From NCBI GenBank assembly GCA_934777095.1, contig CAKVNP010000051.1:1-10065 (forward strand): DNA of 10,065 bases. The letters are read 5' to 3'. Position 1 is the stretch's first letter. Each line of letters begins with the position of its first letter. Under the pieces are notes generated by a model. That model did not search any database. It saw only the letters and a list, made by a program, of their open reading frames with translations, and was not told where the DNA came from. This document shows positions 1 to 7,936 of this stretch, piece after piece. The DNA comes from an uncultured Clostridium sp. Its GTDB lineage: Bacteria; Bacillota; Clostridia; Clostridiales; Clostridiaceae. Made by a program: the position numbers and the translations under genes.

Positions 1-75
1 CATTTCCTCTTTATTAGCAGTATCAACATTTAACTGTCTTAACACCTGCTGAATGAGTTCAAACGTTCCTATCAT
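1..75 (-). CDS. Possible start of the group II intron-encoded protein (partial)
   Basis: From an ATG at 75 a frame stays open for 25 codons to the window edge, beginning MIGTFELIQQVLRQ. It lies about 460 nt into the group II intron, after the EBS1 hairpin and a further hairpin region, which is where the domain IV reading frame of mobile group II introns normally starts. Such proteins combine reverse transcriptase, maturase and often endonuclease domains, but none of those motifs falls within these 25 residues. The amphipathic 'ELIQQVL' style is reminiscent of reverse transcriptase N-termini, which is only a weak argument. No good ribosome-binding site precedes the ATG. It is not dnaE exon 3, which should begin with the EQVMQI-like sequence. 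Confidence 0.4.
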   Translation of the reverse strand, partial: MIGTFELIQQVLRQLNVDTANKEEM

Positions 76-155
76 TCTATCTTTACATATTAACTTAGGC
101 TTTCTCTAGAACCGCTAAGTATCTTTTCGCTTTGTAAGGGTTAGCTAAAGACGAG

Positions 156-177
156 TAATAAATAAATTTATTTATTA
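156..177. repeat. 22-bp perfect AT palindrome in the group II intron
   Basis: The 22 bases read identically on both strands (A/T only) and would form an 11-bp hairpin with essentially no loop. It directly follows the EBS1 stem on the minus strand. In a group II intron this position could be the domain II stem, but I cannot prove the assignment. Confidence 0.5.
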
Positions 178-182
178 AACAT

Positions 183-210
183 AAATTATATAACCAAGAA
201 TATATAATTT
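183..210 (-). other. EBS1 stem-loop of the group II intron
   Basis: On the minus strand AAATTATATA (210-201) pairs perfectly with TATATAATTT (192-183). The 8-base loop is TTCTTGGT. Its CTTGGT (198-193) is the exact complement of ACCAAG at 539-534, the six bases before the proposed intron start. A 6-bp match displayed in the loop of a 10-bp stem is the expected geometry of the exon-binding site 1 that selects the 5' splice site and, in mobility, the DNA target. Confidence 0.82.
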
Positions 211-533
211 ACACTTAGATTATTGCTTACATTTCACAATTATTTGGTTTTCGATTCCTTAAACGAGAATTTCTTTGCGTAGCCATATTAATTTTATAGA
301 CCCCCGATTACTTCTCTAATCACTTTTCAGATCCAATTTTCACCGACTTTAACGAGCTTCATACATAAATATGTTAAACTACTTATGCATGTCGTAGCTT
401 AGGGAAGAATTACCCTTAATAATTCTTAAAAGGATTTTCACCTTTCACTTCAAATGATAAGTTAGATATTAATATATCCCTGCAATTTTATATTATATTT
501 CTATAATTTTTGTATTTGCAGAACGTTTCGCAC

Positions 534-1353
534 CTTGGTACACCATTACTCCATATGTGACATCTAAAATGTCCTCTAATTCAGGAGTTTCGTAATGAAC
601 ACTGTCTTTATTTCTTTTTCCCTCAATATATCTTGGAATCTCTGCCATTGGTCCTGGTCTATATAATGATATCCCGGCTATAATATCTTCTAAACAATCT
701 GGCTTTAATTCCTTCATAAAGGATGTCATTCCTGGAGATTCAAGCTGGAATACACCTGCTGTTTTTCCCTCTCCAATCATCTTGTATACTTCTTTATCTT
801 CCATATCGATTTTATCTAAATCAATATCTATTCCTCTATTTTGCTTAATCATCTTAACAGCATCACTCATAACTGTTAATGTTCTAAGCCCTAAGAAGTC
901 CATCTTTAATAGTCCAAGCTCTTCAAGAGTTGTCATATCAAATTGGGCTACTATATTATCTTCATTTCTTTGCAGTGGTACATATTCCACTAGTGGCTTT
1001 GATGCAATAACTACCCCTGCTGCGTGAGTAGATGAGTGTCTAGGTAACCCCTCAAGAGTTTTGCTGACATCAATTAGTGTCTTAACTCTCTCATCAGTAT
1101 CATAAGCTGCTTTAAGCTCTGGATTCATATCTAAAGCCTTTGTTATTGTTATTCCAAGCATCGTTGGAATCATCTTAGCTACTCTATCAACTTCTGCATA
1201 TGAATAATTCATTGCTCTTCCTACGTCTCTGATACAAAGCCTAGCTGCCATTGTACCAAAGGTAATTATCTGTGATACATTTTTAACTCCATATTTATCA
1301 ACAACATAATCAATTACTTCCTGTCTTCTTTCGTAACAGAAATCCGAATCGAT
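534..1353 (-). CDS. dnaE: DNA polymerase III alpha subunit DnaE, exon 2
   Basis: This is the middle of the replicative polymerase, residues 420-692 if joined to exon 1 after residue 419. It starts IDSDFCYERR, which completes the catalytic motif P-D-I-D begun in exon 1. It continues through QIITFGTMAARLCIRDVGRA, the third catalytic Asp in LKMDFLGLRTLT (about residue 571, matching E. coli D555), and the finger motif SLYRPGPMAEIPRYIEGK. It ends at DVTYGVMVYQ plus the first base of the next codon. The usual continuation EQVMQI is absent; instead group II intron sequence follows, and reading on gives 13 unrelated residues before a stop. There is no start codon: the frame is entered from the group I intron 3' splice site. 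One variant residue is the Ser in IDSD, where Val or Thr is common. The C-terminal third of the protein (rest of fingers, beta-clamp and OB domains) is beyond the window. Confidence 0.93.
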
Positions 1354-1673
1354 CTATTCCTACCCTCTCTTTCGAGATACTTGAACACTGATTTTTCAGT
1401 GGGTATAGACTATATCTTCTCCCACCGGCCTTAAACGGTTTGGGATGCCCCGCTTCGCAAATGTATATCTAACATTCACTACGTGCCCTTGCACTAGTCG
1501 TTGGACCTTTCTCTTTTCAAGACTTGGCTGCTGGTTATCCAATCCCTTTAATTTTTACGGTTAAACCACCTTTTCACTTAGACATATTTCATCCTTTTGC
1601 TTTGGTTTAAAGGGCTCTAAGGACTTTCCAGCAATTCGAGGCTCTTTAAGTATATTATTTCTAATATACACGA
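1354..1673 (-). ncRNA. Group I intron catalytic core (P3-P9 and 3' splice site)
   Basis: On the minus strand, in order: P/P4 element AATTGCTGGAAAGTCC (1636-1621); R element CCAGCAGCCAAGTC (1534-1521), whose CCAGC pairs with GCTGG of the first to form P4; P3'/P7 strand GGTCCAACGACTA (1507-1495); and S element AAGATATAGTC (1418-1408). TAGTC of S pairs with GACTA to form P7, the guanosine-binding helix. P3 is probably GCCT (near 1640) with AGGT. P9 is the hairpin CACTGA/TCAGTG (1401-1386). Next comes CTC-GAAA-GAG with a GNRA loop, and then the terminal G at 1354. The order and content of these conserved blocks leave little doubt about the group I assignment. Confidence 0.9.
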
Positions 1674-1687
1674 CTATAAGTTAACTT
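1669..1687 (-). other. 3' strand of P1 plus internal guide sequence, overlapping the endonuclease stop
   Basis: AAGTTAACTT (1687-1678) pairs over 10 bp (one G-U) with AAGTTAATTT at intron positions 5-14 (2542-2533). After a small internal loop, UA pairs with the first two intron bases. The following GUC-g-UG (1674-1669) pairs with exon CA-GAU, placing a G opposite the splice-site U at 2547, as group I P1 helices require. That G is the last base of the endonuclease TAG stop. The extension helix is strong; the guide pairing is short, with one bulge, so it is tentative. Confidence 0.65.
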
Positions 1688-2507
1688 TCTCACTATTTTT
1701 TAAAATAATATACTTCTTATATTTTCTATCTAAATAAATATTTGAATTATCATATAAATATTCCATTATACTTAATGTTTTGTTTTTCCCACCATAACTT
1801 ATATAGTAATTATTCTTATCATTATTCCATCTTTTAAAAACTCTTTTTTGATAGTCATATTCAGAACAATTATTAAAAATATCAATTATTTTCTCTAACA
1901 ATTCTTTAGTACCACAAATTTTAAAGTTTATTGAATTCCTTGATAATACTAAACTTCCATCGCCATCAAAATATCCACGAATAAAATGTCTATAAAACTT
2001 TTCATTGAGAATTGACTCTTTAGGAAAATCAAGTACTAGCGTTTTATTATTTATTACGCCTTTTTGTTTTATGTCTTCAACCAACTTTTTGCTATTTATA
2101 AGAATTCTACTGTAGTTAAAATTTCCATATGATGATTGTGATAAATATCTCTTAATCGGATATGTAGCATTAATACTTTTTTTAAACTTCAACAAATGAT
2201 TTTCATCATTTTGAGATAAAGCTATTCCAAGATTATTACCTGTAATATATCCATCAGCATAAATGAATCCAAGCCAATAAGCTTTCTCGTCGGTATTTAT
2301 TTCTTCGAAAAAACTTTCATTACAGTAATATCTTTTATGACTTTGACTTGAGTTTCTAGTTTGTATATTCCAGCGCTTAAGCGCATCATAAATACCACAT
2401 AAACTATATCCATACTTATCAGCTATTTCCTTACAAGATATTTGTTTATTTATATATAATTCAATAATTTCATTTTTATATTTATCTAGTTCAAATCTTT
2501 TAGTCAT
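1674..2507 (-). CDS. LAGLIDADG homing endonuclease encoded in the group I intron
   Basis: This predicted site-specific DNA endonuclease would start intron homing by cutting intronless dnaE at the insertion site. The 277-residue protein carries two LAGLIDADG motifs. Numbering from an alternative GTG three codons upstream (2516), WLGFIYADG is at 81-89 and IRGYFDGDG at 179-187, each with its acidic residue (D88, and D184 or D186). This makes it a monomeric two-domain enzyme. The N-terminus, about residues 13-50, looks like a helix-turn-helix (IIELYINKQISCKEIADKYG...). I choose ATG 2507 because AGGTG lies about 7 nt upstream, and it would overlap the GTG. The gene fills nearly the whole P1 loop and its last codons form the 3' strand of that helix. 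It is strikingly AT-rich next to dnaE, consistent with separate origin. It appears intact. Some LAGLIDADG proteins also act as maturases, which cannot be judged from sequence. Confidence 0.92.
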   Translation of the reverse strand: MTKRFELDKYKNEIIELYINKQISCKEIADKYGYSLCGIYDALKRWNIQTRNSSQSHKRYYCNESFFEEINTDEKAYWLGFIYADGYITGNNLGIALSQNDENHLLKFKKSINATYPIKRYLSQSSYGNFNYSRILINSKKLVEDIKQKGVINNKTLVLDFPKESILNEKFYRHFIRGYFDGDGSLVLSRNSINFKICGTKELLEKIIDIFNNCSEYDYQKRVFKRWNNDKNNYYISYGGKNKTLSIMEYLYDNSNIYLDRKYKKYIILKNSEKVNL

Positions 2508-2546
2508 TATTTTCACCTAGTAAAAATTATTTAAATTAACTTTTTA

Positions 2547-3803
2547 ATCTGGCATACTAACTCTTTCCGGATTTAGGAAGCGCTCAAAGATCAAGCTATA
2601 CTTTATTGGATCTATTTTTGTGATTCCCAAAGTATAGGCAACAATGGAGCCTGCAGCTGATCCTCTTCCTGGTCCTGTTGGTATTCCATTTTCATTAGAG
2701 AAATGAATGAAATCCCAGGTAATCAAGAAGTAATCCACATATCCCATTTGATTAATTACTCCCAGCTCATATTCAAGCCTTTCAACGTATTCTAATGCTT
2801 CCTTATTGGTATCCGCAAATCCCTTAACTGCTTTAACGTCTATAGGTTTTCCTACAAAATCTTTAAAAACATCATACCTTTCTACAAGGCCTTCATAACA
2901 TACTTCCTGTAAGTATTCAAAGTGGTCCTTATTATCAGGTACTGGGAAATTCGGCAGCTTCGATACGTGGAATTCATAATCAAAATTACATTCTTCTGCT
3001 ATCTTTACTGAGTTCTCTAAAGCTTCAGGTGCATAGGCAAATAAATCCCACATTTCTTCCTGTGACTTTAAATAGAACTGATCAGATGGATATCTTCTTC
3101 TATTTGTATCATCAATAGTCTTACCAGTCTGAATACACATTAAGATATCATGTGCTTTTGAATCTTCCTGCTTAAGATAATGAACATCGTTAGTTGCTAT
3201 TAGTGGAATACCTGTTTCTTTAGATAACTTCATATTCCAATCAATAACCTTACGCTGCTCCTCCATGCCATGATCCTGGATTTCAAGATAAAATCCTTCT
3301 TTAAATATATCTTTATACTCTAAAGCCAGCTCTTTAGCCTTTTCATAGTTATCAGCCATAATAGCCCTTTGCACTTCTCCACCCAGACAAGCACTTAAAG
3401 CTATTAAACCTTCACTATGTTTTCTTAAGTATTCGTGGTCAACTCTTGGTTTATAATAAAAACCATCTATAGAAGCTGCTGATACTATCTTCATTAAGTT
3501 TTCATAACCAACTTCATTTTTAACTAAAAGAACTAAGTGATTAGTTGAATTTTCTTTATCTGCAACTTTTATATTCATTGATTTAGCTGCAACATAAACT
3601 TCGCATCCTAATATAGGCTTAATTCCATTAGCTACTGCTTCTTTATAAAAAGCAACACAACCATACATAACACCATGGTCCGTAATGGCTATGCTTTTCA
3701 TCCCCAGCTCCTTTGCTCTGGCAATAAGATTTTTTATCTTAGCAGAACTATCAAGAAGACTGTACTCAGTGTGTAAATGAAGGTGGCAAAATTCTTTCGT
3801 CAA
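2547..3803 (-). CDS. dnaE: DNA polymerase III alpha subunit DnaE, exon 1 (N-terminal)
   Basis: This encodes the first 419 residues of the replicative DNA polymerase alpha subunit of the DnaE1 type. The N-terminal PHP domain begins [16 protein letters not shown] (metal-type His 7, 9 and 11), with AITDHG at 40-44 and GCEVYV near 66-71. The palm follows, with [10 protein letters not shown] at about 377-386 and [10 protein letters not shown] at the end. The final Asp419 corresponds to the first catalytic Asp (D401 of E. coli), and a TAA follows at once because the group I intron starts here. The start is TTG at 3803, preceded by GAGGGGTGA with 5-6 nt spacing; no ATG fits the conserved N-terminus better. 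Exons 1 and 2 together give 692 codons of an expected roughly 1170-1190. Without splicing, only a PHP-containing fragment lacking a complete active site would be made. Confidence 0.95.
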
Positions 3804-3823
3804 AATATCACCCCTCTTTTTTA

Positions 3824-3937
3824 ATTATGAATTATGAATTAATGATAAAACTCACAGAGTTTTTATAATTATATTTTTTAAACTCCCTTGAAGGAGTTTA
3901 TTCCACAATTCATCATTCATCACTCATCATTCATCAT
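3824..3937 (-). repeat. Dispersed-type repeat, copy A: 7-bp units flanking two hairpins
   Basis: The element fills the whiA-dnaE spacer. On the minus strand it begins with four 7-bp units of the ATGATGA type (3937-3910; one is GTGATGA). It continues with a hairpin AAACTCC/GGAGTTT (3880-3899) and a second hairpin AAAACTC/GAGTTTT (3847-3863). It ends in units that read ATTATGA twice on the plus strand (3824-3837). The unit arrays at the two ends are therefore inverted relative to each other, as in a MITE. A related element at 7639-7730 lies in the opposite orientation. No clear terminator or dnaE promoter is seen here, so whiA and dnaE may be co-transcribed through it. Confidence 0.7.
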
Positions 3938-3940
3938 TAA

Positions 3941-4891
3941 CTAATAATTTCCGCTTCTTATTTCCTCGGCAATTTTTTCTATTTTTCTCAATCGATGATT
4001 AATTCCTGATTTTCCTACTGGTGGATTTAGCATCTCACCTAGTTCCTTAAGCGATTCGTCTGGATAGCTTAATCTTAATTCTGCAACTTCCTGTAGATTT
4101 TTAGGAAGTCTTTTTAAGCCTATTTTGCTTTGAATCAGCTTTATACTTTCTACTTGTCTTACTGCTGCATTTACAGTTTTACTAAGATTGGCAGTTTCGC
4201 AGTTAACAAGTCTATTGACGTTGTTTCTCATTTCCTTCATTATTCTGATGTTTTCTAATTCTAATAAAGAAGTATGTGCGCCAATAATATTTAAAAGGTC
4301 AACTATCTGCTCACCTTCTTTTATATAAATAATATAACTGTTCTTTCTTTGAATTACCTTTGAATTTAACCCAAATGAATTAATTAATTTACATAAGTCA
4401 ACAGCGTATTCTTCATTGTGAATAACAAACTCTAAATGATATGTTTTTTCAGGGTTGCTAATACTCCCTCCCCCTATAAATGCGCCTCTTACATAAGCTC
4501 TTTTGCATTCTTCGGTCTTTATCATTTCATCATCTATCGTGTAGTCCAGAGTTAAAACTCCATCTACCTCTTTAAATATACCTGTTATTTTCAGTAAATC
4601 TCTTACTCCCATTTCTTCATCAATCAAAACCATATAAATATTGTTCTTTTTTAATGAATTACTTTTCTTAACCATCAGCTTAGAATGAATATCAAAGTAT
4701 TCTTTTAATATAGTAAATATATGTCTTGCTGATGCTGGATTTTCTGTGGTTATCTTAAAGCTTAAACCCTTACCACTAAATCCAATTGTTCCACTGCCCT
4801 TCATAATTGCAGATATTTCTGCTAATGCTTCTTCTCTGGATATATCTATATATCTACATATTTCTCCCTTTACCTTTGCTGAAAACGACAT
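3941..4891 (-). CDS. whiA: DNA-binding protein WhiA
   Basis: This is a conserved Gram-positive DNA-binding protein, a sporulation regulator in Streptomyces and linked to cell division and chromosome segregation in Bacillus. The 316-residue length is normal. The N-terminal part has the LAGLIDADG-derived fold known for the family but without catalytic acids: the motif region reads YVRGAFIGGGSISNP (about 133-147), with Gly where endonucleases carry Asp. A C-terminal helix-turn-helix covers about residues 235-312 (LSKTVNAAVRQVESI..., then LPKNLQEVAELRLSYPDESLKELGEML). ATG 4891 is preceded by AGGAG at 9 nt. It is normally directly downstream of yvcK; here a lipoprotein gene and a promoter intervene. 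Identification is firm; its targets in this organism cannot be read from the sequence. Confidence 0.96.
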   Translation of the reverse strand: MSFSAKVKGEICRYIDISREEALAEISAIMKGSGTIGFSGKGLSFKITTENPASARHIFTILKEYFDIHSKLMVKKSNSLKKNNIYMVLIDEEMGVRDLLKITGIFKEVDGVLTLDYTIDDEMIKTEECKRAYVRGAFIGGGSISNPEKTYHLEFVIHNEEYAVDLCKLINSFGLNSKVIQRKNSYIIYIKEGEQIVDLLNIIGAHTSLLELENIRIMKEMRNNVNRLVNCETANLSKTVNAAVRQVESIKLIQSKIGLKRLPKNLQEVAELRLSYPDESLKELGEMLNPPVGKSGINHRLRKIEKIAEEIRSGNY

Positions 4892-7638: not shown

Positions 7639-7730
7639 ATGATGAATTATGAATGATGAATGACGAATTAAAGTTGAAATTCCTAAGGAATTTCTTTAAA
7701 TAAAAAAATAGAAACTCCCTAAGGAGTTTC
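7639..7730 (+). repeat. Dispersed-type repeat, copy B: 7-bp units and two hairpins
   Basis: The plus strand carries four 7-bp units ATGATGA, ATTATGA, ATGATGA and ATGACGA (7639-7666). Two perfect hairpins follow: GAAATTCC-taa-GGAATTTC (7676-7694) and GAAACTCC-ctaa-GGAGTTTC (7711-7730). The same plan, with the shared AAACTCC/GGAGTTT stem, occurs at 3824-3937 in the opposite orientation. Copy B lacks the inverted unit array at its far end, so it may be truncated or a shorter subtype. Confidence 0.7.
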
Positions 7731-7745
7731 CACCTTTAATAACTA

Positions 7746-7936
7746 AAATAAGATATCATAACGTAAAAAGCATTGAAGCGAGTTTTAGAATCTTATTGCT
7801 TGAATAAGATATATTGCGTTAAGAAAGTTTTACTGTTTGAGTGAAACGAGTTTAAAACTTTTAGCAATATATCTTAGGCAAGCGATAAAGATTCTTAACA
7901 AAGCTTCACAGCTTTTGGAGTTATGATATCTTATTT
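7746..7936. repeat. 191-bp imperfect long palindrome overlapping the murB stop
   Basis: The outer arms pair perfectly over 17 bp (7746-7762 with 7920-7936; core AATAAGATATCATAAC). Moving inward, further paired blocks are AAAAGC/GCTTTT, GAAGC/GCTTC, AGAATCTT/AAGATTCT, GCTTG/CAAGC, AAGATATATTGC/GCAATATATCTT (7806-7817 with 7864-7875), AAAGTTTTA/TAAAACTTT and GTTT/AAAC with a 5-base loop. Matching blocks are separated by short unpaired stretches, so as RNA it would be one long bulged hairpin. The right arm includes the last Lys codon and the stop of murB. The motif GAARCGAGTTT occurs twice within it. No coding frame was recognised. It may be a mobile palindromic element or a structured 3' end of murB mRNA. 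Confidence 0.85.

What the first reader, a model, noticed from the sequence alone, without database searches (positions are those of the whole stretch)
1..3803. dnaE is split by two different ribozyme introns, group I and group II
The gene for the replicative polymerase alpha subunit is broken twice: by a group I intron with a homing gene after codon 419, and by a group II intron start inside a codon about 273 codons later. Both exon junctions reconstruct conserved DnaE sequence exactly. One essential housekeeping gene depending on two unrelated self-splicing RNAs is very unusual in bacteria. It makes DnaE output a function of splicing.
Basis: partly seen in the sequence, partly recalled or inferred. 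Interest (0 to 1): 0.85.

Follow-up and report, generated by a model that had tools for sequence, protein, structure and literature searches.

The report
Clostridium dnaE split by mobile introns
In this Clostridium, a gene for a DNA-copying enzyme is interrupted by two unrelated kinds of self-removing RNA inserts, and comparison with relatives shows that the gene is a landing spot invaded again and again by several kinds of self-removing parasites, one of them of a kind hardly known in bacteria.

Summary
dnaE (minus strand) has exon 1 3803-2547, a 1193-nt group I intron 2546-1354 with a LAGLIDADG homing-endonuclease gene (HEG), exon 2 1353-534, then the first 533 nt of a group II intron that runs off the window. 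Group I: P3-P9 core with pseudoknotted P7; 35 of 86 pairs compensated in 10 homologues. Group II: Rfam D1-D4 hit, GUGCG start, EBS1-IBS1 pairing; relatives carry D5/D6 and the predicted 3' exon. Exon dN/dS of 0.03-0.09 says the gene is in use, hence presumably spliced; there is no RNA evidence.

(1) It is no one-off: 16 of 68 genomes of the genus have interrupted dnaE, patchily, by group I introns, group II introns or inteins, at conserved motifs. (2) The window's group II intron belongs to a dnaE-specific family in which six of eight relatives hold an intact or broken LAGLIDADG gene and none a reverse transcriptase; a 2026 survey knew one such bacterial family, in Thiotrichaceae 16S rRNA. The window ends before its own copy would show this.

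Related genomes also hold a PolC-like gene, so essentiality is assumed; regulation by splicing is untested.

The parts
2547..3803 (-). dnaE exon 1 (codons 1-419, PHP domain and start of the polymerase domain, ends ...ERVSMPD)
   Evidence: (TIGR00594 553.7 bits)
1354..2546 (-). group I intron (1193 nt), inserted between MPD and IDSD; starts with in-frame UAA, ends with G
   Evidence: core structure; homologous introns hit RF00028
1674..2516 (-). intron-encoded LAGLIDADG homing endonuclease (280 codons from GTG 2516; ATG alternative at 2507); motifs LGFIYADG and FIRGYFDGDG (second by eye)
   Evidence: (PF14528 E=3.2e-10)
1354..1678 (-). group I ribozyme core, 3' of the HEG (P1 3' strand, P2-P9)
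   Evidence: alignment A1, RNAalifold, pair counts
1672..1678 (-). internal guide sequence UAUAGUC (P1 3' strand), can pair with GAU|UA at the 5' splice site with U-G at the site; the HEG stop codon UAG lies in it
   Evidence: letters; pairing read by eye
1495..1499 (-). P7 5' strand GACUA
   Evidence: same letters in 10 of 10 aligned cores
1408..1412 (-). P7 3' strand UAGUC
   Evidence: same letters in 10 of 10 aligned cores
534..1353 (-). dnaE exon 2 (820 nt, IDSDFCYERR...VMVYQ + first base of the next codon)
1..533 (-). group II intron, first 533 nt (GUGCG start); truncated by the window edge before D5/D6
293..466 (-). Rfam RF02004 group-II-D1D4-5 match, 51.1 bits
193..198 (-). probable EBS1 CUUGGU, invariant in the 8 aligned introns
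534..539 (-). probable IBS1 ACCAAG, 3' end of exon 2, fully complementary to EBS1

Best explanation
dnaE of this Clostridium is a working gene interrupted by two mobile, self-splicing introns. The pre-mRNA is spliced twice: a group IA-type intron, with the HEG lodged in its P1 loop, removes itself by guanosine attack, and a group II intron removes itself from codon 693. The group I intron spreads by homing: its LAGLIDADG endonuclease cuts intron-less dnaE near MPD|IDSD and the break is repaired by copying the intron. The group II intron belongs to a dnaE-specific family that has, or has lost, a LAGLIDADG gene in the place where others carry a reverse transcriptase, and most likely moved by the same DNA-level homing rather than by retrohoming. 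dnaE is invaded again and again because its catalytic motifs are so conserved; the elements then decay (HEG broken, HEG lost, intron lost). Shown: gene structure, ribozyme cores, homologues, purifying selection, patchy distribution. Inferred: splicing in vivo, endonuclease activity, homing, and that the window's own group II copy has or had a LAGLIDADG gene.
For: Exact junctions and open exon frames. Group I fold on 10 of the 15 B2 introns known here: 99.2% of 859 cells paired, 35 of 86 pairs changed on both sides (shuffled mean 20.6; slid controls 2-5), P7 invariant. RF00028 hits two homologous introns. Group II: RF02004 in the window; RF02004 and RF00029 (D5/D6) in all 8 relatives with the site-C intron, L003, L004, L005, L032, L090, L106, L108, L109 (RF02004 of L109 cut by the locus end). 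LAGLIDADG frame between those two matches: open in L005 and L109, one stop in L106, broken in L003, L004, L108; no such frame in L090 and L032. dN/dS exon 1 0.036-0.090 (3 pairs), exon 2 0.032-0.067 (4 pairs), HEG 0.17-0.20 (2 pairs). Group I: 13 of 206 family genomes match strongly (E<1e-30), all 13 in dnaE with residue 419 right behind the intron; group II: 8 of 206 match in two or more parts at one place or over most of the query, all 8 at dnaE site C. At least 12 (B2) and 7 (C) changes of state on a DnaE tree. HEGs of B2, C and D1 form separate clades.
Against: No RNA evidence of splicing. RF00028 does not hit the window's own group I intron nor several homologues at gathering score. The window ends before D4-D6, so the 3' part of the group II intron, any ORF in it and exon 3 are not seen. 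Group II RNAs without a maturase often splice poorly unaided (recalled); a maturase elsewhere in the genome was not looked for. Endonuclease activity is untested; no solved structure is similar by sequence at E<=0.01. Several dS values exceed 1, so the ratios are rough.
Confidence: 0.88

Rival explanations
1. The introns no longer splice and dnaE is a decaying pseudogene; PolC or another DnaE carries replication.
For: Ten related genomes also hold a frame (about 1440-1490 aa in nine, fragments in G009) about 30% identical to the query, taken here as PolC; G004 also has a 33%-identical DnaE homologue.
Against: Both exons open, dN/dS 0.03-0.09; ribozyme core with compensatory changes; no second dnaE of high identity in the 10 genomes searched.
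Confidence: 0.05
2. The group II intron of the window is an ordinary RT-encoding retroelement whose ORF lies beyond the left edge.
For: RT-type group II introns do occur in dnaE of this group at other sites: L032 (612 aa, RVT_1 6e-32) and L096 (638 aa, RVT_1 7e-36, weak GIIM below its cut-off). The window is truncated.
Against: The window's 533 nt align end to end with site-C introns of relatives; the longest frames of 7 site-C relatives are LAGLIDADG, its remnants or short, and in L109 the LAGLIDADG frame lies directly before D5.
Confidence: 0.07
3. Splicing is used by the host as a switch for the amount of DnaE (for example by temperature or by guanosine or magnesium level).
For: Unspliced mRNA has an in-frame UAA as the intron's first codon, so it would give only a 419-aa N-terminal piece (inference).
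Against: Occupancy is patchy even among near relatives such as L001 and the window, the six tested sites lie in highly conserved stretches, and the HEG is kept under selection: the signature of selfish homing.
Confidence: 0.06
4. Assembly artefact: two organisms joined in a metagenome contig.
For: The nearest MAG (G001) mixes two dnaE versions, 90% identical over 292 nt.
Against: The same two introns at the same sites occur in assemblies not labelled MAG (L003, L004), and the HEG's 90% cluster holds 5 sequences on 5 contigs.
Confidence: 0.02

Closest known systems
Group I introns with HEGs in bacterial and phage DNA-metabolism genes (Hausner et al. 2014, PMC3984707; passages seen)
   [quoted passage not shown] in-frame stop at the intron start
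   Different: The bacterial protein genes named in the passages seen are flagellin, recA, nrdE and nrdF; here dnaE of Clostridium, with the HEG in the P1 loop
Group II introns encoding LAGLIDADG homing endonucleases, group II-LHE (Liu et al. 2026, PMC13190283; abstract and sections 6, 16, 19 read, one term search)
   Same: Group II ribozyme with a LAGLIDADG ORF in place of an RT
   Different: The survey reports 753 cases and in bacteria a single family, rns-1396 in 16S rRNA of Thiotrichaceae; here a protein-coding bacterial gene, in Clostridium. The window's copy is cut before the place of the ORF
[quoted passage not shown] passages seen)
   Same: Both ribozyme classes, with HEGs, in one gene
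   Different: Phage, and EDxHD/Vsr-like HEGs rather than LAGLIDADG; here a bacterial housekeeping gene
[quoted passage not shown] 2003; seen only as a title in the reference list of PMC4649490)
   Same: One bacterial replication-related gene loaded with several kinds of splicing element
   Different: By its title no group I intron; here a patchy, genus-wide pattern
Split-intein dnaE of cyanobacteria (PMC12702839, PMC3403396; passages seen)
   Same: dnaE carrying self-splicing elements
   Different: Protein trans-splicing; here cis RNA introns (and, in L028 and L057, whole inteins)

Membership tests
Group I intron | Conserved P3-P8 core with the P7 guanosine-binding helix | tested here: met
   86-pair structure incl. 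pseudoknotted P7: 99.2% of cells paired, 35 pairs changed on both sides
Group I intron | U-G at the 5' splice site with internal guide sequence; G as last intron base | tested here: met
   GAU|UA can pair with UAGUC; intron ends AUAG (letters, pairing by eye)
Group I intron | Match to Rfam Intron_gpI (RF00028) | tested here: inconclusive
   window not hit at E<=1, B2 of L003, L004, L052, L090 not hit at gathering; B2 of L127 and L129 hit
Group I intron | Self-splicing | not testable with these tools
   needs RNA
Group II intron | GUGYG 5' end and domains I-IV | tested here: met
   GTGCG at 533; RF02004 51.1 bits
Group II intron | EBS1-IBS1 pairing with the 5' exon | tested here: met
   CUUGGU 198-193 with ACCAAG 539-534; EBS1 invariant in 8 of the 9 site-C introns, L109 not aligned
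Group II intron | Catalytic domain V, domain VI and 3' end | tested here: inconclusive
   outside the window; present in all 8 site-C relatives (RF00029 57.2-61.8 bits)
LAGLIDADG homing endonuclease | LAGLIDADG motifs with acidic residues | tested here: met
   LGFIYADG and FIRGYFDGDG (by eye); PF14528 E=3.2e-10
LAGLIDADG homing endonuclease | Cleaves the intron-less allele | not testable with these tools
   needs an enzyme assay
Group II-LHE intron | LAGLIDADG ORF inside a group II intron with D5 | tested here: inconclusive
   met in relatives L005 and L109 (open), L106 (one stop), broken in L003, L004, L108; the window's copy is truncated before that place

The most novel reading that the evidence does not exclude
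The window's group II intron is a member of a second bacterial lineage of LAGLIDADG-encoding group II introns, the first in a bacterial protein-coding gene and in Bacillota as far as the 2026 survey goes, which has swapped reverse transcription for DNA-level homing; and Clostridium dnaE is a natural invasion hub in which inteins, group I introns, RT-type group II introns and LAGLIDADG-type group II introns compete for neighbouring codons of the same conserved motifs.
Probability: 0.7. Interest if true: 0.78.

Novelty: new variant of a known kind. Interest (0 to 1): 0.7.

Why it matters
It offers a bacterial system, with isolates among the carriers, in which group I introns, group II introns and inteins attack one conserved gene. 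Old questions - why replication genes are targets, how a homing endonuclease moves between ribozyme classes, how a group II intron lives without a reverse transcriptase - could be tested there with empty and occupied relatives side by side. It also means that a gene finder would report this dnaE as broken when it is probably working.

Tried and rejected
Own genome: not held, so the contig could not be extended and no second dnaE could be sought in the same genome. RF00028: no hit on the window or on several homologous introns; group I rests on covariation and on the hits in L127 and L129. Left-edge ORF as the start of an RT gene: rejected, it is sequence shared with introns that have no ORF there. 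G001 as one population with and without the B2 intron: rejected, its two contigs are only 90% identical over 292 nt. Phage donor of the HEGs: all 164 phage records matching the B2 HEG and all 130 matching the site-C HEG lie below 60% identity, the best-ranked at 38.1% and 30.8%, so no direct donor in that collection (only the best 20 and 15 rows were shown). PDB relatives of the HEG by sequence: none at E<=0.01. Deeper joins between HEG clades: weak, beside a long branch, not used. Not examined: the short matches in G053, G097, G176 and the many 50-60-nt D5-like matches (L110 and L111 apart, which showed no DnaE), and L138-L140; L135-L137 showed no DnaE in their roughly 3 kb.
Full report
What is in the window. 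The minus strand carries the end of uvrC, then murB, rapZ, yvcK, a small ORF without a family match, whiA and dnaE. dnaE exon 1 (3803-2547) is 419 codons ending ...ERVSMPD; the next triplet is TAA. Exon 2 (1353-534) resumes with IDSDFCYERR and stops one base into codon 693. Pfam places the first break inside DNA_pol3_alpha. That MPD|IDSD is the motif of the catalytic aspartates is recalled knowledge of Pol III alpha.

Group I intron (2546-1354, 1193 nt; site B2). Its HEG (280 codons, PF14528) starts at intron nt 31 and its stop codon lies in the 3' strand of P1, so the HEG fills the P1 loop and the catalytic core follows it. In L057 the same intron, 393 nt, has no HEG. Ten cores, of the 15 B2 introns known here, were aligned. 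RNAalifold gave 85 pairs, 35 with compensatory change. With one conflicting helix taken out and the P7 pseudoknot put in by hand, 99.2% of 859 cells pair, against 87.8% in shuffles and 35-43% in slid controls; 35 of 86 pairs change on both sides, against 20.6 in shuffles and 2-5 in slid controls. P7 itself never varies, so it is supported by conservation alone. Two helices between P7 5' and P3 3' suggest subgroup IA (recalled criterion). Against this, Rfam's group I model misses the window and, at gathering score, the B2 introns of L003, L004, L052 and L090; it does hit the B2 introns of L127 and L129, which are 77% and 76% identical to the window's core.

Group II intron (533-1 and beyond; site C). 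RF02004 hits at 51.1 bits. The 533 nt align end to end with introns at the same site in L003, L004, L005 and L090, and more distantly in L106, L108 and L032. The probable EBS1 CUUGGU is invariant in the eight aligned introns (L109 was not aligned) and fully complementary to the last six bases of the window's exon 2. All eight relatives match RF02004 and the D5/D6 model RF00029 (57.2-61.8 bits).

The group II relatives carry a LAGLIDADG gene. Between the two Rfam matches lie a 306-aa open LAGLIDADG frame in L005 (PF14528 E=2.7e-7), an open stretch of 301 codons in L109, one with a single stop in L106, and broken ones in L003, L004 and L108; L090 and L032 have no such frame. No RT frame was found in them. 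RT-type group II introns do exist in the gene at other sites: in L032 in codon 422 of the reference (612 aa, RVT_1) and in L093 and L096 in codon 777 (L096: 638 aa, RVT_1, and GIIM below its cut-off; L093: a 642-aa frame not tested). A 2026 survey (PMC13190283; abstract and sections 6, 16, 19 read) counts 753 group II-LHE introns and in bacteria only the Thiotrichaceae 16S rRNA family; it started from known sequences by BLASTN, so a divergent family could be missed. Paper searches listed no title or abstract start that reports introns in Clostridium dnaE: 2 of 2 listed; 20 of 75; 30 of 130; 4 of 4; 20 of 27; 15 of 124; 8 of 8. The lists are capped, subscription journals are mostly not held, and only some papers were opened, mostly as passages.

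A hotspot. Mapping 59 loci and later ones onto the C. celatum DnaE reading (its codon numbers are one below the window's at these sites) gives: A 380 (inteins in L028 and L057; Intein_splicing 2.6e-14 and 7e-17), B1 407 (group I; RF00028 in L032, L097, L106, L127, L129), B2 418 (the window's group I), a group II site in codon 422 (L032), C 692 (the window's group II), D1 772 (group I; RF00028 in L094 and L109), D2 776 (group I by eye only), and a group II site one base after D2 (L093, L096). In the genus search 48 of 68 genomes have a continuous dnaE (at least residues 2-1167), 16 an interrupted one, 1 (G043) is split by contig ends and 3 (G039, G046, G058) show none (tally checked). In 206 family genomes 19 match the B2 core at E<=1e-5; the 13 strong ones (E<1e-30) are all in dnaE; of the other six, three looked at showed no DnaE nearby and three were not looked at. 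For the site-C intron 54 of 206 match, mostly over 50-60 nt of D5; 8 match over most of the query or in several parts at one place, and all 8 lie in dnaE. The six tested sites (A, B1, B2, C, D1, D2) fall at the 92.7-98.2 percentile of local conservation (72 of 88 rows; 0 of 20,000 random sets as high; P=0.0001 within residues 340-800). On a quick DnaE tree of 66 rows, B2 (15 of 64 scored) needs at least 12 changes and C (9 of 64) at least 7. The rows were partly chosen because they carry introns, several are partial, and gain cannot be told from loss. L001, which groups with the window and L090, is empty at B2.

Is the gene alive? dN/dS between the window and relatives is 0.036-0.090 for exon 1 (three pairs) and 0.032-0.067 for exon 2 (four pairs); the HEG gives 0.17-0.20 (two pairs). 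Most of these dS values exceed or approach 1, so the ratios are rough. In ten related genomes the only other DnaE-like gene besides PolC-like frames is a 33% homologue in G004; all ten hold a PolC-like frame, in fragments in G009 (named PolC by similarity and length, not by a family test). Clostridia are described as PolC + DnaE1, a set not characterised experimentally (PMC3919608, passages), so that dnaE is essential here is assumed.

Mechanism. Translation of unspliced mRNA would stop at the first intron codon and leave the core free to fold; splicing then joins the exons. The HEGs form separate clades by site (B2 support 84/96, C 99/99, D1 99/98), as expected of site-specific homing enzymes; the joins between clades are weak. 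The site-C series from open to broken to lost frames is what a homing cycle predicts. Splicing, cutting and homing are inferred from the families and not shown here.

Limits. The window's own group II intron is cut at 533 nt; whether it has a LAGLIDADG gene is unknown. 

Noticed in passing
window 7746-7936: Imperfect inverted repeat (49-nt arms, 80% complementary, with an inner 25-nt pair, 88%) between rapZ and murB: a MITE-like palindromic element of about 190 bp.
   Followed up: partly
L028 11141-12412; L057 11144-12415: Inteins with LAGLIDADG domains in DnaE at GRG|SAAG; the same genes also hold two further insertions each, taken as group I introns.
   Followed up: partly
L127, L128, L129, L131: Insertions on either side of an 11-codon (33-nt) mini-exon ([11 protein letters not shown] in the reference); Rfam hits two group I introns each in L127 and L129; L128 and L131 were not run.
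   Followed up: partly
L032 11222-15854: dnaE with three introns: group I without a HEG, RT-encoding group II, and ORF-less group II at site C.
   Followed up: partly
L093, L096 versus L002, L037: An RT-type group II intron sits one base downstream of the position used by a group I intron in other species (codon 776/777; read by eye).
   Followed up: partly
L090 and L091 (genome G001): One MAG holds two dnaE versions, one empty at B2 and one occupied, 90% identical over 292 nt: a mixed bin.
   Followed up: yes
G004 contig C11 103085-105772: A second, 33%-identical DnaE homologue (open frame 1079 aa) in the genome of L005, C. cuniculi.
   Followed up: no
window 3820-3945 and 7640-7680: AT-rich intergenic stretches with repeated ATTCATCATTCATC-like words, seen by eye.
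   Followed up: no
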